From: a virus
Reading direction: 5' to 3' (one strand)
Virus record (IMG/VR): IMGVR_UViG_3300046048_000315
Coordinates: 1-30,933 of that record
Length of the DNA stretch: 30,933 bases
The stretch's first letter is position 1, and every line of letters starts with the position of its first letter. A program made the translations under genes and the position numbers. Positions 5,968 through 24,051 of the stretch are shown piece after piece. Below the pieces are notes generated by a model. The model made no database searches, was not told the origin of the DNA, and saw nothing but the letters and a program-made list of their open reading frames with translations.

Positions 5968-8046
5968 ATGACAATTTACGGTTTCGGATTCAACTCAAAG
6001 ATGCCAATCGGCGATTCTTCACAGAAGGATCTGCTGGGGGGCAAGGGCGCGAACCTGGGGCACATGTCTCGCATGGGTTTGCCGGTACCTCCAGGCATCA
6101 CCATCCCGACCACCTACTGCCAGCAGTGGCTGGCACTGGACCCTAAGCACCAGCCATCCTTCGTGCATCACTTGTACATGGACTCGGTTAAGCCTGCCCT
6201 GGATGCGCTGCAGGAGCAGCACGGGTTCTGCCTGTTCTCGGTTCGATCGGGCGCAGCAGACTCGATGCCGGGCATGATGAACACCCTGCTGAACGTGGGC
6301 ATCACGACGAAGAACTTCCCCACGGTGGAGCAGGCACTGGGCTGGACAGCGGCACACGATTGCCGACGTCGCCAGTTCGAGATGTATGCCGACGTGGTAC
6401 TCGACGCTAACGAGTTGGTCGACACGCTGAAGGCGCAGGTCGCATCGAGCAAGTATGGCGAGAAGGCATTGCCTGCCGACATCTACCAGTCGGTTCCGCA
6501 CTTGCTGAAGCTGATCGAGAAGTACGAGCACAACGTGAACATGCCCGACGACTTCGACAACCAGATGATCCGATCCATCCGAGCCGTGTTCCAGTCGTGG
6601 AACTCCGAGCGGGCGCGGGAGTACCGAGCCATGCACGGGATCGACGACAACCTCGGCACGGCAGTCACGATTCAGTCGATGGTCTACGGCAATCTGAACA
6701 AGAAGTCGGCAAGCGGCGTGTACTTCACGCGCAACCCGATGACCGGCGAGAACATTCCTTACGGGGACTTCGTTGTCGGCGGACAAGGCGAGGATGTCGT
6801 CGCAGGCACGCACGATACCCTGGCGCTTGATTTCCTGCAGGAGTTCAACCCGACCGCGTATGCCCAACTGATCGAGTTCGGCGAGAAGCTGGAGGGTGAT
6901 TTCGAGGACATGGTCGACATCGAGTTCACCATCGAGAACGGCAAGCTGTACATGCTGCAGGTGCGAGTCGGCAAGCGTGAAGCCCGAGCGGCATTCCGCA
7001 TCGCCCATGACTTCGCCGAAGAAGGTGTGGTCAGTCGGGAGCAGGCGTGCAAGATGGTCACCGTCAAGCAGTTCCGAGCCATGCGCAAGACCCGCATCGA
7101 CCTCGACGTGGTACCGGACGCAGACTTCATCGGGATCGCGGCAGGGGGTTCCCTGGTTGTCGGTAGACCGGTTTACTCCTCGGCGGAAGCCAAGGCACTG
7201 GGCGGCAAGGAACCGGTGATCCTTGTCACTGACGAGACCAACCCCGAGGACTTCGGCGGCATGGCGGCAAGCGTCGGCATCCTGACCCGGACGGGTGGGC
7301 AGACATCGCACGCGGCAGTTGTCGGTCGATCGCTGGAGAAGCACTGCGTGGTCGGCTGCACGAGCCTGCCCGAGGAGATCGCTGTCGGTCAGATCACGAT
7401 CGACGGATCGACCGGGCGGGTCTGGTTTAATGCGCTGCCTCTGGTGTCTGATGCTGGCGACGAGTACGCAGCCAAGCTGCTGGAGTGGGGCAGCGAGGGC
7501 AAGATCCTGCGAGTCGGCATCGACTACACGGGAGACCTGAACGGCAAGTGCGTGACCCTGGCGGACGCGGTACCTGCAGACGTGGCAGCGTTCCTCGGGA
7601 CCCTGGCGGCGAAGACGTTCGAGAAGATCTACATCGACCTGACCGTACCGGGCAGCGAGATGCGAGAAGACGATGCGCTGCTGTGGGAGTTGACCGGGCA
7701 GGTGCGTAACCCAGCACGAGAAGCCCTGCAGGCGCGTGTGCACGTGTTTGCTGAAGTGGCTGGGTCCTTGGGCCTCCTAGACCGCGTGCTGCTCTTGGCG
7801 GCACCTGAAGCGTCTGGGGCTTTACTGAGCGCGGGGTGGAAAGTCGTGGCAGTCGTTGATACTCTGGACAGATTGCTGGACAGCACCGGAGTCGTCGACA
7901 TCCTTCCCGCGTTCGCAGCGAGCGTAGGGGGCGAGGAGGTCGCTGCCAAACTGATCAACCTGATGGCAGAGGCTGGCAAGCAGATCGAGCAGGTGCCTGA
8001 CATGCTGTCGCACGCTCGACTGATCTCCACGGTGTTCGCATCATGA
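5968..8046 (+). CDS. truncated pyruvate phosphate dikinase-like protein (ATP-grasp + phosphohistidine domains, new C-terminus)
   Basis: The 692-residue product matches the first two parts of pyruvate phosphate dikinase (PPDK: ATP + Pi + pyruvate to AMP + PPi + PEP). Visible motifs are LLGGKGANL (about 23-31), FSVRSGAADSMPGMMNTLLN (about 89-108), TAVTIQSMVYGN (about 232), GVYFTRNPMTGE (about 250), GEDVVAGTH (about 274) and DIEFTIENGKLYMLQVRVG with Q331/R333, then the phosphohistidine domain with GILTRTGGQTSHAAVV, catalytic His448. These sit at almost the same residue numbers as in full-length PPDK (about 875 residues). The PEP/pyruvate barrel with its LCRTEHMF and catalytic Cys motifs is missing; instead about 190 unfamiliar residues follow. 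The protein could therefore still phosphorylate its own histidine but should not make PEP unaided. It has its own promoter and ribosome site CACGGAGGCA. Alternatives: a PEP-utilising family enzyme with another acceptor, or a decoy/regulator of host PPDK. Confidence 0.9.
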   Translation: MTIYGFGFNSKMPIGDSSQKDLLGGKGANLGHMSRMGLPVPPGITIPTTYCQQWLALDPKHQPSFVHHLYMDSVKPALDALQEQHGFCLFSVRSGAADSMPGMMNTLLNVGITTKNFPTVEQALGWTAAHDCRRRQFEMYADVVLDANELVDTLKAQVASSKYGEKALPADIYQSVPHLLKLIEKYEHNVNMPDDFDNQMIRSIRAVFQSWNSERAREYRAMHGIDDNLGTAVTIQSMVYGNLNKKSASGVYFTRNPMTGENIPYGDFVVGGQGEDVVAGTHDTLALDFLQEFNPTAYAQLIEFGEKLEGDFEDMVDIEFTIENGKLYMLQVRVGKREARAAFRIAHDFAEEGVVSREQACKMVTVKQFRAMRKTRIDLDVVPDADFIGIAAGGSLVVGRPVYSSAEAKALGGKEPVILVTDETNPEDFGGMAASVGILTRTGGQTSHAAVVGRSLEKHCVVGCTSLPEEIAVGQITIDGSTGRVWFNALPLVSDAGDEYAAKLLEWGSEGKILRVGIDYTGDLNGKCVTLADAVPADVAAFLGTLAAKTFEKIYIDLTVPGSEMREDDALLWELTGQVRNPAREALQARVHVFAEVAGSLGLLDRVLLLAAPEASGALLSAGWKVVAVVDTLDRLLDSTGVVDILPAFAASVGGEEVAAKLINLMAEAGKQIEQVPDMLSHARLISTVFAS

Positions 8047-8826: not shown

Positions 8827-9166
8827 AGGGTTCGGCATACCTATGCGGCTGGTCCGCTGGGTGCGCGACCACGAATACGCTGACGAGGATGCGTACCTCT
8901 GGCTGCGGCGTGCGATGTACGAGAGTGCACCGATCACGCACCCGGAGGGCAACCGTCGGTACGGTGACCTGTTGCTGACGGTGAGTGACAACCGGCTGGT
9001 TGACCTCGCAGTCTACGAGCCACAGTGTGCATCCTGTAACGACACGCGTCGGTTCATCGCGTACGACCCGGACGGCACACCAAGATCCTGGCCCTGCCCA
9101 GATTGCAGGGTTGACAAACGTCAAGGACGAGCAGAGAATAGAACGTCGAATACACCACGGAGGTGA
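8774..9166 (+). CDS. hypothetical protein with zinc-ribbon motif
   Basis: GTG 8774 overlaps the preceding gene by 53 bases in another frame and gives 130 residues. The N-terminal part has a helix-rich region (MRLVRWVRDHEYADEDAYLWLRR), and the C-terminal part a zinc-ribbon: CASCNDTRRF...WPCPDC (about 85-111). The last ~20 residues are read through promoter P4 and look unstructured. Purine-rich GAGGAGG lies about 15 bases upstream of the start; an internal ATG near 8843 is an alternative. Function unknown; a nucleic-acid-binding role is possible. Confidence 0.7.
   Translation: MALFIENGKKATSKPRPEGFGIPMRLVRWVRDHEYADEDAYLWLRRAMYESAPITHPEGNRRYGDLLLTVSDNRLVDLAVYEPQCASCNDTRRFIAYDPDGTPRSWPCPDCRVDKRQGRAENRTSNTPRR
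9111..9139 (+). promoter_or_regulatory. sigma70-like promoter P4
   Basis: GGGTTGACAAACG block with TTGACA at 9111-9116, 17-base spacer, GAGAAT (9134-9139) as a modest -10. TTGAC/GTCAA (9111-9115 / 9120-9124) form a small inverted repeat over the -35. It lies inside the end of the gene at 8774 and drives the phosphatase gene at 9168. Confidence 0.6.
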
Positions 9167-9167
9167 C

Positions 9168-9677
9168 ATGTTTAGTAATGAGTATCAACGCGTCCAATCA
9201 ATTGGACGATCGCGCCCGGATTCCATCCGCACCATCATGCTGGAGTTCCCCTTCGGCGCTGCAGCGGTGACCGGGGGTCCTTACCTGCATCGTCTTCCAG
9301 GCTATGCCGGGGTGAAGCTGGCGGCAGAGATCGACGCCGAGTGCGCCATCAACCTACCGACCGAGGACTTCAGCGTGCCTGACGTCGAGCAATGCGAGCG
9401 AGCACTGGCAGCAGCGATTGCACTGGCAGCAGCAGGCTCACCGATCTATGTCGGCTGCATGGGTGGCATCGGTCGCACTGGTCTGTTCCTGGCGCTGCTG
9501 GCAAAGATCTCGCTGCGGTCGATGAAGCCGTGGTATTCGCTGAGTTCCCATCAGGACCCGGTCGCGTTTATCCGCAACACCTTCAAGCCCCACGCGGTCG
9601 AGACCAAGCAGCAGCAGGAGTACGTCCAACTGTTCAACACGCACCGGCTGGAACGTCTTGCAAAATCCTTACGATAG
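9168..9677 (+). CDS. dual-specificity/tyrosine phosphatase-like protein A
   Basis: The 169-residue product carries the Cys-phosphatase P-loop C-x5-R in YVGCMGGIGRTGLFLALLAK, with nucleophile Cys97 and Arg103. Family members hydrolyse phosphate esters of Tyr/Ser/Thr, phospholipids or RNA 5' ends through a phospho-Cys intermediate. The length is close to the minimal dual-specificity fold. I start at ATG 9168, after CACGGAGGTG (9156-9165), although the frame is open further upstream. A related gene is at 11014: both have the same P-loop and a conserved later block (DPVAFIRNTF here, DPIGYVRENY there), so they are paralogues. A 14-bp repeat lies 25 bases after the start codon. Possible substrates include the products of the PPDK-like kinase nearby; that is inference. 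Confidence 0.8.
   Translation: MFSNEYQRVQSIGRSRPDSIRTIMLEFPFGAAAVTGGPYLHRLPGYAGVKLAAEIDAECAINLPTEDFSVPDVEQCERALAAAIALAAAGSPIYVGCMGGIGRTGLFLALLAKISLRSMKPWYSLSSHQDPVAFIRNTFKPHAVETKQQQEYVQLFNTHRLERLAKSLR
9193..9206 (+). repeat. 14-bp dispersed near-palindrome, copy 2
   Basis: TCCAATCAATTGGA, extended to CGTCC...GGACG by the flanks. It is in the first codons of phosphatase A (QSIG), downstream of promoter P4, a place where a bound protein could block transcription. Confidence 0.9.
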
Positions 9678-9734: not shown

Positions 9735-9944
9735 ATGGAAAAGAGATTCACAGTTACGATCGAGACCCCCGAGGCGTGGGACGGTGAACTTGCCGTCTTC
9801 AAAATCGTCAACCGTCGCGGTCGCACCTGGGTGTCCAAGACCCCAGACGCGCCCTGCTACCTGTCGGAGCAGCACTACGAACTGGAGGACTACCTCAACA
9901 ACGGGGGCAAGCTGAACCCGGCGTCCTGGGAGGAGGTTGCCTGA
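9735..9944 (+). CDS. small hypothetical protein
   Basis: The 69-residue product (MEKRFTVTIETPEAWDGELA...) looks like a small beta domain with a C-terminal helix. It follows promoter P5 and ribosome site CACGGAGGCA (9722-9731). Its stop TGA overlaps the ATG of the next gene, so translation is coupled. No family recognised. Confidence 0.75.
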   Translation: MEKRFTVTIETPEAWDGELAVFKIVNRRGRTWVSKTPDAPCYLSEQHYELEDYLNNGGKLNPASWEEVA

Positions 9945-11017
9945 TGTTCGCCTATGACACCGACACCCTGAACCACCACACGAAGGAGAGACCGGGCACC
10001 ATGTTCCGCGACCTCTCCGGCGTGCCGATGAACGAGATGGGCAAAGCCCTGGCAGTTGCCAAGCAGCGAGCGAACGGCAAGGTGCAACCGGAGCAGGAGG
10101 CTGTGGTCTTCTACCTGTTGAACCATGCGGTCGCTGAGATCGCGCAGAAGGTGGACACCGACGAACCTCTGGGAGACTACCTGCCGATCGTCGAGAACTA
10201 CCACCGGGCACTGAACCGTCTGGGTTTCCGTCTGTTCAGCTACCTGTTCTGCATCACCACGCGGGAGGCGCGGCACCTGAACGAGATCCAGTTCAGCAAG
10301 CTGAGCGCAGCGCATCCTCCGGTGCTGGTGAACTTCCTGTCGAACCGAATCAAGAGCAAGGCACAAGAGGCTCTGTTCGATTGCGATCTTCCCGGTGTGA
10401 CCGTGGGTCAGTACCTCGACTTCATCGCGGACATCTACTACGTCTGCACCTGGGGTGGATCGTTCGGCGGACCCAAGTGGGGAGTCATCACCGATTGCCT
10501 GCGCAGCGTGGTGAAGGGCGAGTCCTCGATCGAGATGATGCTGGACGTCGGCTACACGCTGGCGCATAACACCTCCTCGATCTTCAACAAGGGCATGTAC
10601 TACAACGACTACAGCGGCGACGACATGATCGTGATACTGGACTGCCAGCGAGCGGGGCAGATCCCGAACTACGTGAAGTCCGGCGAGTACCCCCACGTGA
10701 ACAAGGAAGCCCACGGTCTGCTGAAGCAGATCGAGGATGCGGGTCTGATGACCGTGCAGCCCTGGGTGAACTGGGGACTGGTTGAACTGCTGGGCAGCAT
10801 GAAGAAGTACCCCTCCTTCAAGGTAGCAACGGAGCACAAGTTCGGCGGGAATGCCGACTATCAAGTCGAGGTGGCGAGTACCGCAGACAAGGCGCACGCC
10901 AAGCAGGTCGCCAATCTTGCGGCACTGGCGGCGAAGGAAGCGGCAGAGAACGAAGGCACGATCGAGATCATGCCGGGCGTGAAATTGAAGAAGGCGAAAG
11001 CCGTGAGGGCTGCATGA
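9944..11017 (+). CDS. conserved-looking phage protein of unknown function
   Basis: The 357-residue product is a well-folded soluble protein: helix-rich N-terminal half (AVVFYLLNHAVAEIAQKV, YHRALNRLGFRLFSYLF), a Gly/Trp segment (TWGGSFGGPKWG, about 168-179), an acidic-aromatic segment (YYNDYSGDDMIVILDCQ, about 220-236) and a Lys/Ala-rich helix at the end. GGGAGGAGG precedes the ATG. It lies between a small gene and phosphatase B, overlapping the latter by four bases, so the three are co-expressed from P5. I do not recognise the family, and no catalytic motif is certain. Confidence 0.8.
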   Translation: MFAYDTDTLNHHTKERPGTMFRDLSGVPMNEMGKALAVAKQRANGKVQPEQEAVVFYLLNHAVAEIAQKVDTDEPLGDYLPIVENYHRALNRLGFRLFSYLFCITTREARHLNEIQFSKLSAAHPPVLVNFLSNRIKSKAQEALFDCDLPGVTVGQYLDFIADIYYVCTWGGSFGGPKWGVITDCLRSVVKGESSIEMMLDVGYTLAHNTSSIFNKGMYYNDYSGDDMIVILDCQRAGQIPNYVKSGEYPHVNKEAHGLLKQIEDAGLMTVQPWVNWGLVELLGSMKKYPSFKVATEHKFGGNADYQVEVASTADKAHAKQVANLAALAAKEAAENEGTIEIMPGVKLKKAKAVRAA

Positions 11018-11658
11018 TGTGGAAAGGAAAAGAGACGACCCCGAAGTGGGGCGGGAAGAAGTCAGCGGGAGGGTGGACGACCAACGGCAAGCGATGCTAC
11101 CACGACCACCCGGTGCTGAAGCTGAAATGCACGACCGGCGAGGACGTGGAGATCTTTGGCGGGTCCTGCGGGTCACCCGTGTGGGACGACTGCGACATCT
11201 ACATCGGGCTGGACTACTCGATGAAGGACCACCCGCATCGGTTCCCGTGGCACCCTGGGCACGCGATCCACTACAAGATCACCGACATGAAGGCACCCGA
11301 GGACCCGGTCGAGTTCAAGCAACTGATCGACTGGCTGTGCACTGAACTGCGTCAGGGAGCGCGTGTGCACGTCGGCTGCATAGGGGGGCATGGCAGGACG
11401 GGTCTGGTGCTGTCGGCGCTTACAGCGACGCTGACGGAGTCACAGGACCCCATAGGCTACGTGCGGGAGAACTACTGCAAGAAGGCAGTCGAGTCCGAGG
11501 AGCAGGTCGAGTTCCTCGTGCAGCACTTCCACTGTGCCAAGGCACTGCCGGTGAAGACGTACGCGACCCCCAAGAAGACCAGCACGATGACACGGGTCGG
11601 GCCGGTGCGGGACGCGCCCATGTACCTGTTCGGAGATTATGAGGTAACCCCATTTTAG
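11014..11658 (+). CDS. dual-specificity/tyrosine phosphatase-like protein B
   Basis: The 214-residue product has the P-loop VHVGCIGGHGRTGLVLSALT with Cys122 and Arg128 (C-x5-R), followed by DPIGYVRENYCKKAVESEEQ, closely parallel to phosphatase A at 9168. The N-terminal part is longer (about 70 residues rich in Lys/Trp/Gly: WKGKETTPKWGGKK), and a C-terminal tail of about 35 residues is absent from A. An aspartate in IGLDYSMKDHPH could be the general acid. The gene starts four bases inside the previous one. Two diverged copies so close together suggest duplication followed by specialisation for different substrates. Confidence 0.8.
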   Translation: MMWKGKETTPKWGGKKSAGGWTTNGKRCYHDHPVLKLKCTTGEDVEIFGGSCGSPVWDDCDIYIGLDYSMKDHPHRFPWHPGHAIHYKITDMKAPEDPVEFKQLIDWLCTELRQGARVHVGCIGGHGRTGLVLSALTATLTESQDPIGYVRENYCKKAVESEEQVEFLVQHFHCAKALPVKTYATPKKTSTMTRVGPVRDAPMYLFGDYEVTPF

Positions 11659-16249: not shown

Positions 16250-16297
16250 CGGAGGTACTAGGGTACTCCCATCCAATCAATTGGACGGAGACCTCCG
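16250..16297 (+). promoter_or_regulatory. structured leader before the portal gene
   Basis: CGGAGGT (16250-16256) pairs exactly with ACCTCCG (16291-16297), which covers the space between the GGAG ribosome site (16287-16290) and the GTG start. An alternative hairpin pairs GGAGGTAC (16251-16258) with GTACTCC (16263-16269) with one bulged G. The two exclude each other, so the leader could switch portal translation on or off. Copy 4 of the 14-bp repeat lies inside. No function shown. The region 16210-16296 otherwise holds no gene. Confidence 0.45.
16272..16285 (+). repeat. 14-bp dispersed near-palindrome, copy 4
   Basis: TCCAATCAATTGGA immediately before the portal ribosome site (GGAG at 16287-16290). 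Confidence 0.9.
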
Positions 16298-18183
16298 TGG
16301 CGATCAGACGAAGCAGTGGAAGCGGTGACGGCGACGGGAAGCCGTTGACCATCGGCAACGCACTGGGTGTGCAAGGCGAAAGCGGCGCACACTTCACCGT
16401 GATCAAAGGCGGGCGAGTAGCCAAGCAGGACAGGCAGGTTCTGCAGGGCACTGACATCGAGAAGGACGACGCGTTCGAGGACTTCTACTTCGACCCCAAC
16501 AAGCAAGACGAGAAAGCCAAGGTACTGCGACCCCCTTACCTGCCGAAGCATCTGTCGAGCCTGTGCCAGCACAACAACACCCTGGGACAGATGATCACCA
16601 CGATGGAGGTGAACATCGACGGCACCGGCTGGGTGATCGAGAAGGACGACGACACCGAAGACGAGACCGAGGAGAACGACGCCGAGATCGACCGGCTGAC
16701 CCAGTGGTTCGCCGAGCCATACCCCCGGACGTCATTCACCACGATCCGCCGAGCCATTCGCCGCGACATGGAGAAGATCGGCTACGCCTACGCCGAGGTG
16801 CTGCGTGCTGTCGACGGTACCCTGACCTTCCTGAAGTACCTGCCCGCTGACCAGATGCGACTGGTCAAGCTGGACGAAGCCGTGCTCGTGGAGGAGACGG
16901 TGAAGCGCGACGGCGAGGAACTGAAGATCTCCATGTATAAGCGCGAGCGCAGGTTCGCACAGGTGCAGGGCAAGAAGATCGTGTACTTCGCCGAGTACGG
17001 GGCGAGCCGTGACGTCGATCGCAACACCGGGGACTGGGCTGACAAGGGATCTCTGCCGGTGGCTGACCGGGCTACCGAGGTGCTGTTCTTCAAGATCCAC
17101 GAGGATGCCCTGACCGCGTACGGTGTGCCGCGCTGGGTGAACAACATCCCGAGCGTGATCGGATCGCGCAAAGCCGAGGAACTGAACCTCGACTTCTTCA
17201 ACTCAGGCGGACTACCCCCGGCGTTGATCTTCATCCAAGGCGGGCAGTTGACCACCGAGGTGCGCAAGCAGGTGCAGCAGTACATGTCCGGCAAGGGCAG
17301 CGGCTACAACCGGGGCGGCATCGTCGAGGTGCACAGCACCGGAGGTACGGTCGACTCCCCTGGTAACGTCCGGGTGACGGTCGAGCGGTTCGGTTCCGAG
17401 CGGATGCAGGACAGCATGTTCGAGAACTACGACGCACGCTGCGAGGAGCGGGTGCGCGGATCGTTCCGGCTTCCCCCGATCTTTGTGGGTAAGTCGCAGG
17501 ACTACTCCTTCGCGACTGCATACGCGAGCTACACCGTCGCCGAGGCGCAGGTGTTCCAGCCCGAGCGCGAGGAGTTCGACGAGATGATCAACAACACGAT
17601 CATGCGTGAACTCGACCCCTCCGGCGAATACGTGTACCGATCCCTGCCGCTGTCCGTGAAGGATGTGCAGACCCAACTCGAAGCTCTGGGCATGGTGGCT
17701 GACAAGCTGTCAGACGAGGGCCTGATCATCGCAGTGAACGAAGCCGTGGGGCTGTCCCTGAAAGTCGACGACAGCGCAGCCGAGGAGGAGGAGCCAGACC
17801 CCAACGCATTCGAGCCGCAGATGCCGAACCCGGTCGCAGTGGAGGGCGTGCCCCCTTCGACACCTGCCAACCCGGCATCCCCTGGCGGACCGGCACCCAC
17901 CCCCGTCGAGCGGTCCGTGACGAAGTGGGACACGTTCGAGCTTATGGAACTGGTCAACCGCTGGTGCCATGCCATGACCACGGACGAGATCGACGACAAG
18001 GACATCGCACTGATGCGTTCGCAGATTCAACGGATGGACGGCAACACGCGGGAGCGGTTCGATGGCTACGCTGCCATGCGCATGATGGGCGACGCGTTGG
18101 ACTTCGATCTGCACGGTGGTGTGGAACTGGTCGGCGCAGCGAGTGAAATCGCAGAGCATGGCGCAGATGGCTGTAAGCACTGA
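16297..18183 (+). CDS. portal protein (PBSX-type)
   Basis: The 628-residue product has the features of a phage portal protein: an acidic N-terminal arm, a conserved central part with RRDMEKIGYAYAEVLR, AYGVPRWVNNIPSVIGSRKA (the hallmark block of PBSX-family portals), NSGGLPPALIFIQGG and SFRLPPIFVGKSQDYS, then a long stem helix region. Portals form the dodecameric ring at one capsid vertex through which DNA is packaged and ejected. The C-terminal third (about 500-628) is Pro/acidic rich and then helical, longer than in the smallest PBSX portals. GTG start with GGAG six bases upstream. It opens the head operon and overlaps the MuF fusion gene. Confidence 0.9.
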   Translation: MAIRRSSGSGDGDGKPLTIGNALGVQGESGAHFTVIKGGRVAKQDRQVLQGTDIEKDDAFEDFYFDPNKQDEKAKVLRPPYLPKHLSSLCQHNNTLGQMITTMEVNIDGTGWVIEKDDDTEDETEENDAEIDRLTQWFAEPYPRTSFTTIRRAIRRDMEKIGYAYAEVLRAVDGTLTFLKYLPADQMRLVKLDEAVLVEETVKRDGEELKISMYKRERRFAQVQGKKIVYFAEYGASRDVDRNTGDWADKGSLPVADRATEVLFFKIHEDALTAYGVPRWVNNIPSVIGSRKAEELNLDFFNSGGLPPALIFIQGGQLTTEVRKQVQQYMSGKGSGYNRGGIVEVHSTGGTVDSPGNVRVTVERFGSERMQDSMFENYDARCEERVRGSFRLPPIFVGKSQDYSFATAYASYTVAEAQVFQPEREEFDEMINNTIMRELDPSGEYVYRSLPLSVKDVQTQLEALGMVADKLSDEGLIIAVNEAVGLSLKVDDSAAEEEEPDPNAFEPQMPNPVAVEGVPPSTPANPASPGGPAPTPVERSVTKWDTFELMELVNRWCHAMTTDEIDDKDIALMRSQIQRMDGNTRERFDGYAAMRMMGDALDFDLHGGVELVGAASEIAEHGADGCKH

Positions 18184-20926
18184 GTCGTTTCTTGTCCTAG
18201 AAAAGGCACTAGCAAGGCGACTAACAAATGCCTGGACCAAAGACACCGCTACCACCCGACGGAAGATCGTCGATGCTGTCCAGCGAGGAGATTTTGCGGA
18301 AGCTGTCGACCTCTGCGATGGCTTGGGCATGGGTCCAAGTGCTGAGCGCAACCGTCGATATGCTGAGTTCGTTGGGATGCAAGCCGTCCTGTTCGGAGCG
18401 AGCCGACTCTCCGCAGGAAACCCTAAGCGGACCATGTTCATGGGCAAACCACGACCCCCAGAAGTCGAGCAAGCCACCGACATCCTCCTGTTCACCCTCG
18501 CCGACAACGGTACCCGCGACGTTTGCGCACTTGCGTCTCGTCTCCTCGAAGCGGAACGAGCACGTCAGCAGGACGAGACTTTCAAGCATGAAGTCCGCAA
18601 AGCTGCTACTGCTGGATTCGTCCGAGGATTCACCTCTGCCGTAAACGGCAACGGTCAGGCATACATCAACATCGGGTCCTCCCTGCACAACTCGCGCCTG
18701 GGCGCGTGGGGCTTTACGCAGGAGGCAGGCTTCCGTGAGATCAAGCAGTACCAAGTCAGCGAACAACTCGACGGACGCCAGTGTCCTGTGTGCGAAGCCA
18801 TGCACGGGCGCAAGTTCGAGGTGGCACCGGCTGAGAAGAAGCTGGAGCAGTGGCTGGGTGCCAAGAACCCCGACGACCTGAAGGCACTGGCACCCTGGCC
18901 GAAGCAGGACAAGAACTCGGTCGCCAAGCTGCGAGCCATGTCCAACGACAGGCTGTCGAGCAACGGCTGGGACACGCCACCGTATCACCCCCTGTGCCGA
19001 GGCATCCTTGTGCCTGCCGGACAGATCAAGGAAAAGCTGCCAACCCCTCGCGTCGAAGACACGATGGAGAACCCGATCATCGGCAAGCCAGATCCTGCCC
19101 TGGAAGCGCAGCCGATCATCGAGGCACCGGACCCGCACCAGTTGCCGTTCACGGGCAGCGTGGCCGAGTACCGCGACCGGTTCTTCGTCGAGGGCGTTAC
19201 CCCCGAGGACATCCTGGCGCGACACGATCCCAAGGCGAAGACGATCATCGCGAGGTACGAGGCGGATCTGGCGAAGGGCAAGTCGACGCGGGAACTCTAT
19301 CACGATGGCTACGACTGGAACGACGAGCGCAAGCAACTGCACAACGAGATCATCGCCAAGATCCTGAACCCTGTGGACGTGGCGAGAGCAACCCCTCCTC
19401 CGGGCGTGAAGCCGAAGGTCACGGTGCTGGGTGGTCGCGGTGGATCGGGCAAGACGTTCCTGACCGAGGGCGTCGACGAGAAGTTCTTCAAGAAGAACGG
19501 CTACGGCAAAGGCGCACCCGTCGATCTCTCCGACAAGATCGTGCTGAACTCCGACGAGATCAAGAAGCTGCTGCCCGAGTACGAAGGCTGGAACGCGGGC
19601 CTGTTGCATCAGGAAGGCTCCGAACTGTTGAAGCGGATCGAGAGCATCGCCCAAGAGCGTCGTCTTAACGTGGTGCTCGACACAACCCTGGCCGGGCGCA
19701 GCAAGGCACTGGGCAACCTGCAGAACTACCTCGACGCAGGCTTCGAGGCAGAAGGCTACTACATGCACCTGCCAAGACAGGAGGCGGCGTTCCGTGCCGT
19801 GTTCCGTGGCATCGGCGGCGAGAAGCGGTACGTGCCGATCGACATTATCCTGGGCAACCTCGACAACGAGGACTCCTTCGACGCGATGAAGAAGTTCTTC
19901 ACGCGCTGGGGGGCCTGGGACAATCAGGTGCCGCAGGGCACGCTGCCGAGATTCATCGGTGGCGAGAACCTGCCGAGCTACGTGCCCCTGAACAACCCGG
20001 CAGGTGGCGGGCCGAGCATCCCCGGCAAGCGTCGGCGCAAGCCCAAGCCACCCCCGGTGCAGGTGTACACGCTGCCCGGTGTGAAACCTCTGAAGGGTGT
20101 GGCTGTCGAGGAGAACATCGACGAGACCTTCGACTACCTGGGGTCGCACGCGTACCCTGGCGATCGACCGAGCATCGAGCAGAACGCACAGGCGCGAGTC
20201 AGGACGAACTACGAGAAGGCGGGCACTCGGATCGCAGAGCACTCGACCCTGGACGAGGCAGCGGCACTCGCACGGCTGGAGCCACACGAAGCTGCTGCCC
20301 TGCACCAGTACACCGAGACCGCGTACCGGCAGGTGAACGGTCACCTGGGCGGCTGGCGCAACCTGTCCGAAACGAGTGCCAGACTGGTCACCGGTTATGG
20401 GCTGGTGCTCGACAAGGCAATGGCAAAGCTGCCGAGCTACGGAGCGAAGACCACCTACCGAGGCATGACCGTAGAGAACCACACTATCCAGGCGCACCGC
20501 GAGACGTTCCAAGTCGGGCGCACCATCAACCTCGGGTACTTCATGTCGACCGCGAGCGCGGACAACGCTGCCTTCGGCGGCAACCTGAAGTACGTGGTGC
20601 ATGGCAAGAAGAACGGAGGCGGCAAGTCCGTGACCCCCTATTCTCAATACGGCTATGACGAGACCGAGGTATTATTCCGACCGGGTACAACCTTCAAGGT
20701 GCTGAACGTGGAAGACGGGGTTGACCGTTACGGAGATCCGAGCATGGTCATCTACCTCGAAGAAGTCGGGGCGACCCGCAAGTACGACGTCACCGAGGAG
20801 CAGGCACTCTGGATTCTGGAAGCCAAGAAGCAGCAGGTCGCTGCTGAGCTAGAGTTCCTGCGCACCGGCAAAGAGTGGAACCCGTCCCCCGTCTGGAAGG
20901 ACAAGATGAAGATCGAGAAGGACTGA
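18158..20926 (+). CDS. MuF head protein fused to zeta-toxin-like kinase and ADP-ribosyltransferase
   Basis: From ATG 18158 the product has 922 residues; the frame is open to GTG 18116, so the start may lie up to 14 codons earlier. Residues 1 to about 290 form a MuF-type (SPP1 gp7/Mu gpF) head morphogenesis domain: CPVCEAMHG (C209, C212) and YHPLCRG (H277, C280, R281). Residues about 405-600 look like a zeta-toxin/UDP-GlcNAc-kinase P-loop domain: GGRGGSGKT (K432), then LNSDEIKKLLPEY and VVLDTTLAG. Residues about 640-890 match R-S-E ADP-ribosyltransferases: TYRGM (R768), FMSTAS (S797-T798), and ETE (E835, E837) in YDETEVLFRPGTTFKV. All three sets of key residues are present. MuF proteins sit inside the head, and MuF-toxin fusions are known in phages, so delivery of both enzymes with the DNA is a good inference. 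Targets unknown. Confidence 0.9.
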   Translation: MAQMAVSTESFLVLEKALARRLTNAWTKDTATTRRKIVDAVQRGDFAEAVDLCDGLGMGPSAERNRRYAEFVGMQAVLFGASRLSAGNPKRTMFMGKPRPPEVEQATDILLFTLADNGTRDVCALASRLLEAERARQQDETFKHEVRKAATAGFVRGFTSAVNGNGQAYINIGSSLHNSRLGAWGFTQEAGFREIKQYQVSEQLDGRQCPVCEAMHGRKFEVAPAEKKLEQWLGAKNPDDLKALAPWPKQDKNSVAKLRAMSNDRLSSNGWDTPPYHPLCRGILVPAGQIKEKLPTPRVEDTMENPIIGKPDPALEAQPIIEAPDPHQLPFTGSVAEYRDRFFVEGVTPEDILARHDPKAKTIIARYEADLAKGKSTRELYHDGYDWNDERKQLHNEIIAKILNPVDVARATPPPGVKPKVTVLGGRGGSGKTFLTEGVDEKFFKKNGYGKGAPVDLSDKIVLNSDEIKKLLPEYEGWNAGLLHQEGSELLKRIESIAQERRLNVVLDTTLAGRSKALGNLQNYLDAGFEAEGYYMHLPRQEAAFRAVFRGIGGEKRYVPIDIILGNLDNEDSFDAMKKFFTRWGAWDNQVPQGTLPRFIGGENLPSYVPLNNPAGGGPSIPGKRRRKPKPPPVQVYTLPGVKPLKGVAVEENIDETFDYLGSHAYPGDRPSIEQNAQARVRTNYEKAGTRIAEHSTLDEAAALARLEPHEAAALHQYTETAYRQVNGHLGGWRNLSETSARLVTGYGLVLDKAMAKLPSYGAKTTYRGMTVENHTIQAHRETFQVGRTINLGYFMSTASADNAAFGGNLKYVVHGKKNGGGKSVTPYSQYGYDETEVLFRPGTTFKVLNVEDGVDRYGDPSMVIYLEEVGATRKYDVTEEQALWILEAKKQQVAAELEFLRTGKEWNPSPVWKDKMKIEKD

Positions 20927-21165
20927 TGGCAAAAGAGAAGGGTATCGTCAGCGAAGTCGACGGACACATCCTGACGTACGACAACGGTAAGATCCTGCCA
21001 CGCGACTGGTTTGACAGTGACGCGCCGCAGGAGATCATCGACGAGATCAACAACCGACTACCCGAGAAGGGGTACGAGGACCAACTGCGTGCAGGCTTCG
21101 CTCGCGACCTGAAGCTGGAAGCCAAGCTGAACATGACCCTGGTCGATCCCGAACTGCTGAAATAG
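20926..21165 (+). CDS. small acidic/basic protein directly after the toxin fusion
   Basis: ATG 20926 shares one base with the stop of the fusion gene (TGATG), so the two are translationally coupled. The 79-residue product begins MAKEKGIVSEVDGHILTYDN, short strands then helices (PQEIIDEINNRL, DLKLEAKLNM). In MuF-toxin and other polymorphic-toxin loci the gene right after the toxin often encodes an immunity protein; that role is possible here but there is no motif to prove it. It could equally be a small head completion or head-decorating protein. Confidence 0.7.
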   Translation: MAKEKGIVSEVDGHILTYDNGKILPRDWFDSDAPQEIIDEINNRLPEKGYEDQLRAGFARDLKLEAKLNMTLVDPELLK

Positions 21166-21202: not shown

Positions 21203-21811
21203 GTGCCTCCCATGACGACCGAGTGTCTTATCAAGCGAACCGATGACGAACTACAGATCGTCTACGGCGAGGTCTACGCTCCGAACGTACCAGACGTTCA
21301 CGGCGAGTTCATGACACCGGTCGAGGTTCGGAAGATGGCGCACAGGTTTATGACGAAAGGCATCCTGGCGTCGGTCGATACGAACCACGACAACGAGTTG
21401 AACGGGTCGATGATTGTCGAATCGTTCATTGCGCGAGAGGACGACGACATCTACATCCCCGAGTCCTGGGTCATCGGAATGCACGTTCCCGATCCAGTCA
21501 TGTGGGGCAAGATCAAGTCGGGCGAGATCAACGGGTTCTCGATGGAGGCATTGGTACGTCTCTCCGAGAAGGTGATCGAGATCGAGATACCGGAACAGAT
21601 CACCGGCATCACGAGCGAGGCGTCAGGACACAAGCATAAATTCGAGGTGCGGTTCGACGACGAGGGGAATTTCATGGGAGGGCTGACGTCGGAAGACGGA
21701 GGTCATCGGCACGAGATTCTGAGGGGCACAGTTACCGAAGCAGCAGATGGTCATACGCACAGGTTCTCGTTCGCCGAGGCTTTGCAGATGATCAGTGACA
21801 GGGCCGCATGA
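21203..21811 (+). CDS. XkdF-like prohead protease with GHxH repeats
   Basis: The 202-residue product matches the XkdF-like putative phage protease: GEVYAPNVPDVHGEFMTPVE, VRKMAHRFM, the block DTNHDNE, ESWVIGMHVPD and INGFSMEALV. Such proteins process the scaffold and capsid during head maturation. The C-terminal part has three GHxH units (GHKHKFEV, GHRHEI, GHTHRFSF) that could bind a metal. GTG 21203 is chosen because GGAGG (21191-21195) lies seven bases before it; ATG 21212 is the alternative. It overlaps the next gene by four bases (ATGA). Confidence 0.8.
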   Translation: MPPMTTECLIKRTDDELQIVYGEVYAPNVPDVHGEFMTPVEVRKMAHRFMTKGILASVDTNHDNELNGSMIVESFIAREDDDIYIPESWVIGMHVPDPVMWGKIKSGEINGFSMEALVRLSEKVIEIEIPEQITGITSEASGHKHKFEVRFDDEGNFMGGLTSEDGGHRHEILRGTVTEAADGHTHRFSFAEALQMISDRAA

Positions 21812-23100: not shown

Positions 23101-24051
23101 ATGATGGATAACCAGACTCTCATGCAGAAAGCAGACTGGGCCGTCAGCGACCTCGATTCCACCGGGGGTAAGCTGAACGACGAACAGGCGAACGCTTTCA
23201 TCAGAAAGCTGCTTGTGCAGCCGACGATCCTGCAACAGACGCGTACTGTGACAATGTCCAGCCCGCAGCGACAGATCAACAAGATCAACTTCGCCAGCCG
23301 CATCCTGAAGCCAGCCGTGAGCAACACTGCTCTGTCCGCTGGTGACAGATCGGCACCCACGACCGAGCAGGTCCTGCTGACCACGAAAGAGGTGATCGCC
23401 GAAGTGCGTCTGCCTTACGACGTGATCGAGGACAACATCGAGCGCGGTAACATCGGCGCACGCACCGACACTGGCGGGTCTCCGACCAGCGGTGGCATTC
23501 GCGACACGATCATGACTCTGATCGCAGAGCGGGCCGCACTGGACCTCGAAGAACTGGCACTGCTGGGCGACACCGGTTCCGGCGATCCCTACCTCGCGCT
23601 GCTCGACGGGTGGCTGGTACAGGCAACCACCAACGTGGTCGACCTTGCCGGTGCCGCGATCAGCAAGGACACCTTCAAGCAGGGAATGCAGGCAATGCCT
23701 GACCAGTACCTGCGGAACCGTGCCGCGATGCGCCACTTCATCTCCGTGGACAACGAGATCGGCTACCGTGATTCCCTGGCGAATCGCGAGACCGCACTCG
23801 GCGACGCGCAGATCCAGGGCATCTCTCCGGTCTACGGTTTCGGTGTTCAGCTTGACCCGGTGTCTCTGATGCCTGCAGCCAATGGTCTGACGACCAACCC
23901 GCTGAACTGCATCTTCGGCATCCAGCGCGACATCCACATCGAGACTGACAAGGACATCTCCAGCCGTGTGTACATTATCGTGCTCACGATGCGGATGGAC
24001 TTCAAGTACGAGGAAGAAGAAGCAGTCGTGAAGTACACCAACCTCGGCTAA
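23101..24051 (+). CDS. major capsid protein (HK97 fold)
   Basis: The 316-residue product fits a small HK97-fold capsid protein: helix-rich N-arm, RTVTMSSPQRQINKINFASR, APTTEQVLLTTKEVIAEVRL, a spine helix region around TIMTLIAERAALDLEELALL, GDTGSGDPYLALLDGW, then PDQYLRN and an A-domain-like end (IQGISPVYGFGVQLD ... IFGIQRDIHIETD). These blocks are characteristic of XkdG-like capsids. AGGAG lies before the tandem ATGs at 23101 and 23104. Genes upstream (protease, scaffold) and downstream (connector, tail) agree. No sign of a separate N-terminal delta domain. Confidence 0.85.
   Translation: MMDNQTLMQKADWAVSDLDSTGGKLNDEQANAFIRKLLVQPTILQQTRTVTMSSPQRQINKINFASRILKPAVSNTALSAGDRSAPTTEQVLLTTKEVIAEVRLPYDVIEDNIERGNIGARTDTGGSPTSGGIRDTIMTLIAERAALDLEELALLGDTGSGDPYLALLDGWLVQATTNVVDLAGAAISKDTFKQGMQAMPDQYLRNRAAMRHFISVDNEIGYRDSLANRETALGDAQIQGISPVYGFGVQLDPVSLMPAANGLTTNPLNCIFGIQRDIHIETDKDISSRVYIIVLTMRMDFKYEEEEAVVKYTNLG

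What the first reader, a model, noticed from the sequence alone, without database searches (positions are those of the whole stretch)
18158..20926. Capsid MuF protein carrying two toxin-like enzymes: zeta-type kinase and ADP-ribosyltransferase
One gene in the head operon encodes MuF + P-loop zeta-like kinase (GGRGGSGKT) + R-S-E ADP-ribosyltransferase (R768, S797-T798, E835/E837). MuF-toxin fusions and virion-borne ART enzymes (T4 Alt) are known, but two different enzyme domains on one MuF protein is unusual. It suggests an effector injected with the DNA that could block cell-wall precursor synthesis or modify host proteins at the start of infection.
Basis: partly seen in the sequence, partly recalled or inferred. 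Interest (0 to 1): 0.85.

Follow-up and report, generated by a model that had tools for sequence, protein, structure and literature searches.

The report
Phage head protein carrying two enzymes
One gene of an uncultured tailed phage makes a head protein with a kinase and an ADP-ribosyltransferase joined to its end, most likely packed in the particle and injected to alter the host at the start of infection; such multi-enzyme head proteins are a known class, and this is a new combination of parts within it.

Summary
Gene 18158-20926 (+, 922 aa) encodes a MuF-type minor head protein (about 1-292), a zeta/AvrRxo1-like P-loop kinase (about 387-613; K432, D466, R550, R557) and an R-S-E ADP-ribosyltransferase (about 682-875; R768, S797-T798, E835/E837). 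Profile searches and AlphaFold/Foldseek agree. It sits between portal and XkdF-like protease genes.

The 'unusual' claim is weakened. Iyer 2017 describes MuF-zeta and MuF-ART fusions as polyvalent proteins. Cyanophage P-SS2 ORF030 is MuF + zeta + a weaker ART-like domain, and it is abundant in virions (96.5 peptides on average). HVTV-1 gp115 joins zeta and ART.

What is new: at the same portal-MuF-XkdF position, close relatives carry MuF+zeta only, MuF+ART only or other ends, so this gene combines two payloads that otherwise occur singly. The kinase keeps its catalytic residues but lacks three UDP-GlcNAc contacts of zeta toxin and shares motifs with AvrRxo1, a NAD 3'-kinase, so a cell-wall target is doubtful. 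A 79-aa ORF overlapping the stop belongs to a family found beside 7/7 zeta-bearing and 0/26 other loci, a candidate cognate inhibitor.

Best reading: a virion-delivered dual effector, a new variant of a known kind. Substrates, packaging and injection were not tested for this protein.

The parts
16297..18183 (+). portal protein gene (context); its end overlaps the MuF gene
   Evidence: PHROG 12 E 2.6e-28; TIGR01540 portal_PBSX E 3.9e-42
18158..20926 (+). MuF + zeta/AvrRxo1-like kinase + ADP-ribosyltransferase gene, 922 aa
18158..19033 (+). MuF-type head domain, residues 1-292
   Evidence: PHROG 30193 E 1e-19; relatives
19316..19996 (+). zeta/AvrRxo1-like P-loop kinase domain, residues 387-613
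   Evidence: PF06414 E 6e-16; model pLDDT 88 matching zeta, AvrRxo1 and PezT; conserved R391, H395, K432, D466, H484, E486, R550, R557
19430..19456 (+). Walker A motif GGRGGSGKT, residues 425-433
19553..19555 (+). D466, predicted catalytic base (zeta D67)
   Evidence: alignment A5, 27/27 conserved
19991..20080 (+). G/P/K/R-rich linker 612-641 between kinase and ART; the MuF-zeta-only relative L061 ends near here
20201..20782 (+). R-S-E (ExE type) ADP-ribosyltransferase domain, residues 682-875
   Evidence: PF03496, PF01129; PDB profile hits Vis, Tre1, Lmo0066; Foldseek Tre1, XopAI, C3
20459..20461 (+). R768 of the R-S-E triad
20546..20551 (+). S797-T798 (STS-like motif)
20660..20668 (+). E835-T-E837, ExE motif
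20926..21165 (+). 79-aa ORF, start overlaps the stop (TGATG); candidate cognate inhibitor or chaperone of the kinase
   Evidence: same family beside 7/7 zeta-bearing and 0/26 other MuF-XkdF loci
21203..21811 (+). XkdF-like head protease gene (conserved synteny)
   Evidence: PF14550 E 4e-25
23101..24051 (+). virion structural (probable major capsid) protein, context
   Evidence: PHROG 1623 E 9.5e-103

Best explanation
It is a virion-borne dual effector of the 'polyvalent' type. The MuF part places a few copies inside the head near the portal, and the protein or its C-terminal parts enter the cell with the DNA. The kinase then phosphorylates a small nucleotide-type metabolite, more likely NAD-like (as AvrRxo1 does) than UDP-GlcNAc, and the ExE-type ADP-ribosyltransferase mono-ADP-ribosylates host protein(s), probably on arginine. 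The aim would be host takeover or blunting of host defence in the first minutes. The overlapping 79-aa ORF most likely makes a cognate inhibitor or chaperone that keeps the kinase quiet while it is made in the producing cell. The three-part protein arose by adding an ART module to a MuF-zeta protein at a position where payload modules are swapped. Shown here: domains, catalytic residues, synteny, module swapping and co-inheritance of the small ORF with zeta. Inferred: packaging and injection of this protein, substrates, the function of the small ORF, and benefit to the phage.
For: Domains and residues. Folds. Catalytic but not UDP-GlcNAc-contact residues conserved: with PMC3062530. Synteny portal-MuF-XkdF. 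In one supported MuF clade (98/93) the payload is zeta+ART (window), zeta (L061/L066), ART (L067) or other (L063, L065). Small-ORF family beside 7/7 zeta loci and 0/26 others, in two separate MuF clades; one single zeta clade rejected (p-AU 2.8e-5). Virion packaging of relatives: AXL1 gp16 MuF+ART and P-SS2 ORF030 MuF+zeta+ART-like. AvrRxo1 has a small downstream inhibitor, AvrRxo2, 98 aa (PMC5087710). Prior proposals of injection: PMC5512222, PMC9503650, PMC5576092.
Against: The phage is uncultured: no proteomics, no host. By sequence the kinase scores somewhat better against zeta (81.6 bits) than AvrRxo1 (51.4 bits), and NCBIfam XopAJ/AvrRxo1 is below its cut-off, so NAD as substrate is only a lead. 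T510 (zeta T118, a UDP-GlcNAc contact) is kept. Zeta and its small ORF are adjacent, so one recombination event could carry both without functional coupling, and only two independent pairs exist. The small ORF has no known homologue. No case of a MuF payload entering a cell was found in the papers read.
Confidence: 0.62

Rival explanations
1. Canonical zeta/PezT reading: the injected kinase phosphorylates UDP-GlcNAc and stops murein synthesis, with the ART acting on other proteins.
For: Zeta 1gvn and PezT 2p5t are the best sequence-profile hits and 1gvn the best Foldseek E-value; catalytic D, two R and T118 equivalents are kept; Iyer 2017 proposes this for MuF-zeta fusions.
Against: UDP-GlcNAc contacts E100, R120 and T128 become K492, A512 and N520 here and are not conserved across 27 relatives. 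The same kinase family sits in head regions of viruses of Haloarcula, which lack murein. AvrRxo1 lacks the same contacts and does not use UDP-GlcNAc to a significant extent.
Confidence: 0.15
2. Counter-defence payload: kinase and ART act mainly on host anti-phage machinery or its signal nucleotides rather than on growth, like other enzymes fused to MuF (2H phosphoesterases, Nudix).
For: The best viral structural neighbour of the kinase (40% identity, 1134 aa) is named 'Anti-CBASS protein Acb1', suggesting the same kinase fused to an anti-CBASS enzyme; Iyer/Aravind papers give MuF-2H and MuF-Nudix fusions with this reading.
Against: The name was not checked by domain analysis; no defence system can be tied to this phage; it does not explain a dedicated inhibitor.
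Confidence: 0.3
3. Polymorphic toxin for competition: a temperate phage's lysogens use injected MuF toxin to harm non-lysogens, and the 79-aa ORF is immunity expressed in the lysogen.
For: [quoted passage not shown] ORF identity follows payload type here.
Against: No integrase or repressor was recognised among the genes searched in this 30.9-kb fragment. A scan of bacterial genomes with the MuF profile found one locus only, unlike a common prophage family.
Confidence: 0.1
4. Structural only: the domains are decayed passengers and the protein acts just as a minor head protein.
For: Many relatives do without either domain.
Against: Catalytic residues of both enzymes are intact, most of them invariant across relatives at 24-30% identity.
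Confidence: 0.05

Closest known systems
Polyvalent virion proteins with MuF domain (Iyer et al. 2017, PMC5512222)
   Same: MuF plus several enzyme domains in one polypeptide encoded among virion genes; MuF-zeta and MuF-ART fusions are both listed
   Different: the exact MuF-zeta-ART order was not found in the passages read; compact 922 aa; cognate small ORF not described there
Cyanophage P-SS2 ORF030 (1499 aa; PMC2784084)
   Same: MuF + zeta + ART-like domain with R-S-ExE, portal nearby, 96.5 virion peptides on average
   Different: 26% identity in the kinase; ART match weak (26 bits, Pfam E 0.008, below cut-off); annotated as capsid/head protein only
Haloarcula virus HVTV-1 gp115 (1313 aa)
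   Same: zeta and ART in one protein in the head gene region
   Different: no MuF in the protein (a separate head-assembly gene precedes it); archaeal host
Pamexvirus/Bradleyvirinae minor head proteins (AXL1 gp16, PaMx28, Elanor)
   Same: MuF at N-terminus, homologous ART at C-terminus (about 30-35% identity); AXL1 gp16 proven in virions
   Different: no zeta domain; about 1200 aa
AvrRxo1/XopAJ type III effector kinase with AvrRxo2 (Arc1)
   Same: kinase fold (TM 0.65-0.68), ERxxLH and VHxESS motifs, small inhibitor ORF downstream
   Different: low overall identity; substrate of the phage kinase unknown; the 79-aa ORF has no detected kinship to AvrRxo2
DLP5-like phages (Delepquintavirus)
   Same: portal-MuF-XkdF synteny, homologous MuF
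   Different: ParB-like nuclease domain in place of zeta+ART, no small zeta-type ORF

Membership tests
MuF head proteins | MuF domain homology | tested here: met
   Pfam alone weak (E 0.12) but PHROG 30193 E 1e-19, TIGR01641 SPP1 gp7 domain E 5e-4 below cut-off, relatives reaching PF04233 E 2e-7 to 6e-9
MuF head proteins | gene next to portal in the head operon | tested here: met
   portal upstream, XkdF protease and capsid genes downstream
Polyvalent virion proteins | two or more effector enzyme domains in one protein encoded with virion genes | tested here: met
Polyvalent virion proteins | present in the virion and delivered with DNA | not testable with these tools
   only relatives:
Zeta/PezT UDP-GlcNAc kinases | P-loop kinase fold with Walker K, base D, two catalytic R | tested here: met
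   K432, D466, R550, R557
Zeta/PezT UDP-GlcNAc kinases | UDP-GlcNAc contacts E100, T118, R120, T128 | tested here: not met
   only T118 equivalent kept (contacts)
Zeta/PezT UDP-GlcNAc kinases | epsilon/PezA antitoxin partner | tested here: not met
   the only coupled small ORF matches no antitoxin family
AvrRxo1/XopAJ NAD 3'-kinases | family profile score above curated cut-off | tested here: not met
   XopAJ E 3e-4, 20 bits versus cut-off 300
AvrRxo1/XopAJ NAD 3'-kinases | NAD 3'-kinase activity | not testable with these tools
   needs an enzyme assay
R-S-E ADP-ribosyltransferases (ADPrib_exo_Tox/ART) | profile above gathering score and R, S-T, ExE motifs | tested here: met
   PF03496 30.2 versus 23.4 and PF01129 28.7 versus 22.3 bits; motifs; fold
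MuF polymorphic toxins | variable C-terminal toxin plus small downstream immunity ORF | tested here: inconclusive
   variable ends and payload-specific small ORF found; immunity not tested
MuF polymorphic toxins | carried by temperate phages | tested here: inconclusive
   partial genome, no lysogeny gene recognised among the genes searched
T4 Alt | Alt family ART | tested here: not met
   phrog_802 Alt-like only E 0.069

The most novel reading that the evidence does not exclude
A virion-delivered NAD-directed pair: an AvrRxo1-like kinase that makes 3'-NADP (or another 3'-phosphorylated nucleotide) and an ART that consumes NAD, joined on one capsid protein and held in check during assembly by a cognate small inhibitor encoded by an overlapping ORF. 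Zeta-ART pairing in P-SS2, HVTV-1, L056 and this phage would then be recurrent for a functional reason.
Probability: 0.15. Interest if true: 0.75.

Novelty: new variant of a known kind. Interest (0 to 1): 0.5.

Why it matters
It shows an injected head protein being built by stacking payload modules that close relatives carry singly. It questions the cell-wall reading routinely attached to phage 'zeta toxins', and it offers a concrete candidate for a phage-encoded inhibitor of a virion-packaged enzyme. The P-SS2 and AXL1 proteomes already show that such proteins are in particles, so the enzymatic predictions can be tested directly.

Tried and rejected
phmmer of the single protein against PDB finds only the ART; the kinase needed a profile. 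The MuF profile finds no solved structure. Literature searches with MuF + zeta toxin + ADP-ribosyltransferase gave nothing. The ART profile reached only 9 viral loci, none with zeta. The MuF scan of bacterial genomes gave one locus. The idea that closest relative L060 (66% MuF identity) carries a broken ART was left open: about 85 residues match weakly (E 0.018) and no ART core was seen in the forward frames downstream. Chance was rejected as the source of the P-SS2 and L023 ART-like matches: 26-30 bits against at most about 3 bits for reversed sequences and R-S-ExE kept, but they remain weak. T4 Alt membership rejected. Plasmid search: one weak ART hit.

Full report
What is there. The window is a 30.9-kb fragment of an uncultured tailed phage in IMG/VR. 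The ORF at 18158-20926 is intact. Its N-terminal 290 residues are a MuF-type head domain. Pfam sees it only weakly, but PHROGs, portal-adjacent genes of Stenotrophomonas and Vibrio phages, and 72 viral loci place it firmly. Residues about 387-613 are a zeta-type P-loop kinase (PF06414 E 6e-16) and about 682-875 an ADP-ribosyltransferase (PF03496, PF01129). A second assembled contig, 99.9% identical, crosses the kinase/ART junction.

Folds. The kinase model (27-sequence alignment, pLDDT 88) matches zeta toxin (E 2e-10, TM 0.58), AvrRxo1 (TM up to 0.68) and PezT. The ART model (pLDDT 72, core mostly 74-96) matches Tre1 (TM about 0.8 by target length), XopAI and C3 exoenzymes. The ExE motif (E835-T-E837) is that of arginine-type ARTs (established knowledge of the family).

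Same place, different payloads. The order portal - MuF - XkdF protease - 400-aa protein - capsid protein is shared with DLP5 and many metagenomic phages. What follows MuF differs: nothing long (L069, L071), a ParB-like domain (DLP5), zeta only (L061/62/66; L014, L016, L097, L102, L105, L109, L111), ART only (L067, L068, L095), unknown ends (L063-65, L070, L074 and others), and zeta plus ART (window). In a well-supported six-member MuF clade (98/93) the window, L066 (zeta), L067 (ART), L060 and L063/L065 (other) stand together. L061 is 58% identical in MuF and 67% in zeta and ends just after the kinase. So the window gene looks like an L061-type MuF-zeta gene with an ART module added through a G/P/K/R-rich linker.

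Precedents. MuF-zeta and MuF-ART fusions are named in Iyer et al. 2017 (PMC5512222), and ART-MuF fusions and polyvalent proteins again in PMC9503650. Among cultured viruses, P-SS2 ORF030 has MuF (154-270), zeta (427-597) and an ART-like region (906-1050; weak but with R, S and ExE), and is among the best-detected virion proteins, 96.5 peptides on average (PMC2784084). Marine contigs L023-L025 look alike, and L024 and L027 carry two zeta copies. HVTV-1 gp115 has zeta and ART in one protein beside a separate head-assembly gene, and L056 is similar without MuF. MuF-zeta also occurs with protein-kinase-like and PI3/4-kinase-like ends (L044, L035). Two enzymes on one MuF protein is therefore not exceptional.

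What the kinase may do. All 27 aligned sequences keep K432, D466 and R550, and 26 keep R557. Of the zeta residues that touch UDP-GlcNAc (E100, T118, R120, T128; PMC3062530), only T118 has a conserved counterpart; the others are K, A and N here and vary in relatives. Two motifs invariant or nearly so in this family, ERxxLH and VHxES, align with AvrRxo1 but not with zeta, and NCBIfam assigns the L061 kinase to XopAJ/AvrRxo1 (E 1.7e-11, far below cut-off). AvrRxo1 lacks the UDP-GlcNAc contacts and phosphorylates NAD at the 3' position (PMC5087710, PMC5491322). Haloarcula hosts have no murein (general knowledge) yet their viruses carry this kinase. I therefore rank a NAD- or nucleotide-like substrate above UDP-GlcNAc; this is inference.

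A partner ORF. A 79-aa ORF starts in the stop codon of the gene (TGATG). Its family (shared LTYxNGxxI motif) occurs beside all 7 dereplicated zeta-bearing MuF-XkdF loci with readable downstream DNA and beside none of 26 others (Fisher p 2e-7, not corrected for relatedness). Zeta-bearing MuFs form two groups; a single group is rejected (p-AU 2.8e-5), and both groups have the ORF. Only two independent comparisons exist, and adjacency alone could explain joint transfer. Other payload types are followed by other small ORFs. [quoted passage not shown] A cognate inhibitor or chaperone is the simplest reading.

Delivery. AXL1 gp16, MuF plus an ART homologous to this one, is in CsCl-purified virions with 48 peptides and 48% coverage (PMC9206674). 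With P-SS2 this supports packaging for the class. Injection is proposed, not shown, in the papers read.

Verdict. Observation confirmed, interpretation partly supported. A new variant of a known kind: a polyvalent MuF effector that joins two payloads found singly in its near relatives, with a candidate inhibitor ORF. The most interesting open point is the kinase substrate.

Noticed in passing
window 5968-8046 (+): 692-aa protein with PPDK N-terminal and PEP-utiliser mobile domains (PF01326 E 3.5e-40, PF00391 E 4e-20; PHROG 18609 E 6e-140), apparently without the PEP-binding barrel: a phage-encoded truncated pyruvate phosphate dikinase.
   Followed up: partly
window 8985-9677 and 11014-11658 (+): Two related DSP/PTP-type phosphatase-like proteins flanking 9944-11017; PHROGs calls the same family thymidylate synthase, Pfam calls them Tc-R-P/PTP-SAK phosphatases of polymorphic toxin and NAD-kinase contexts.
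   Followed up: partly
BFVD A0A6J5LTH6 (1134 aa): Best viral structural neighbour of the kinase (40% identity) is named anti-CBASS protein Acb1, suggesting a kinase fused to an anti-CBASS enzyme in another phage.
   Followed up: no
L024:30-4292, L027:4687-9906: Marine MuF proteins with two tandem zeta domains.
   Followed up: partly
L044:2301-5156 and L035:2066-4906: MuF-zeta proteins with a third kinase-like domain (protein-kinase-like; PI3/4-kinase-like).
   Followed up: no
L106:3038-3946, L107:9004-9915, L032:1-1008: Stand-alone or separately encoded ART genes in the head region beside MuF or zeta genes.
   Followed up: no
L123:5296-8229: MuF-type protein with weak intein-splicing and LAGLIDADG matches inside.
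   Followed up: no
L064:7590-7886, L065:6460-6756: A different, conserved 98-aa ORF (83% identical) overlapping the stop of MuF genes with uncharacterised C-terminal ends: perhaps another payload-specific partner.
   Followed up: no
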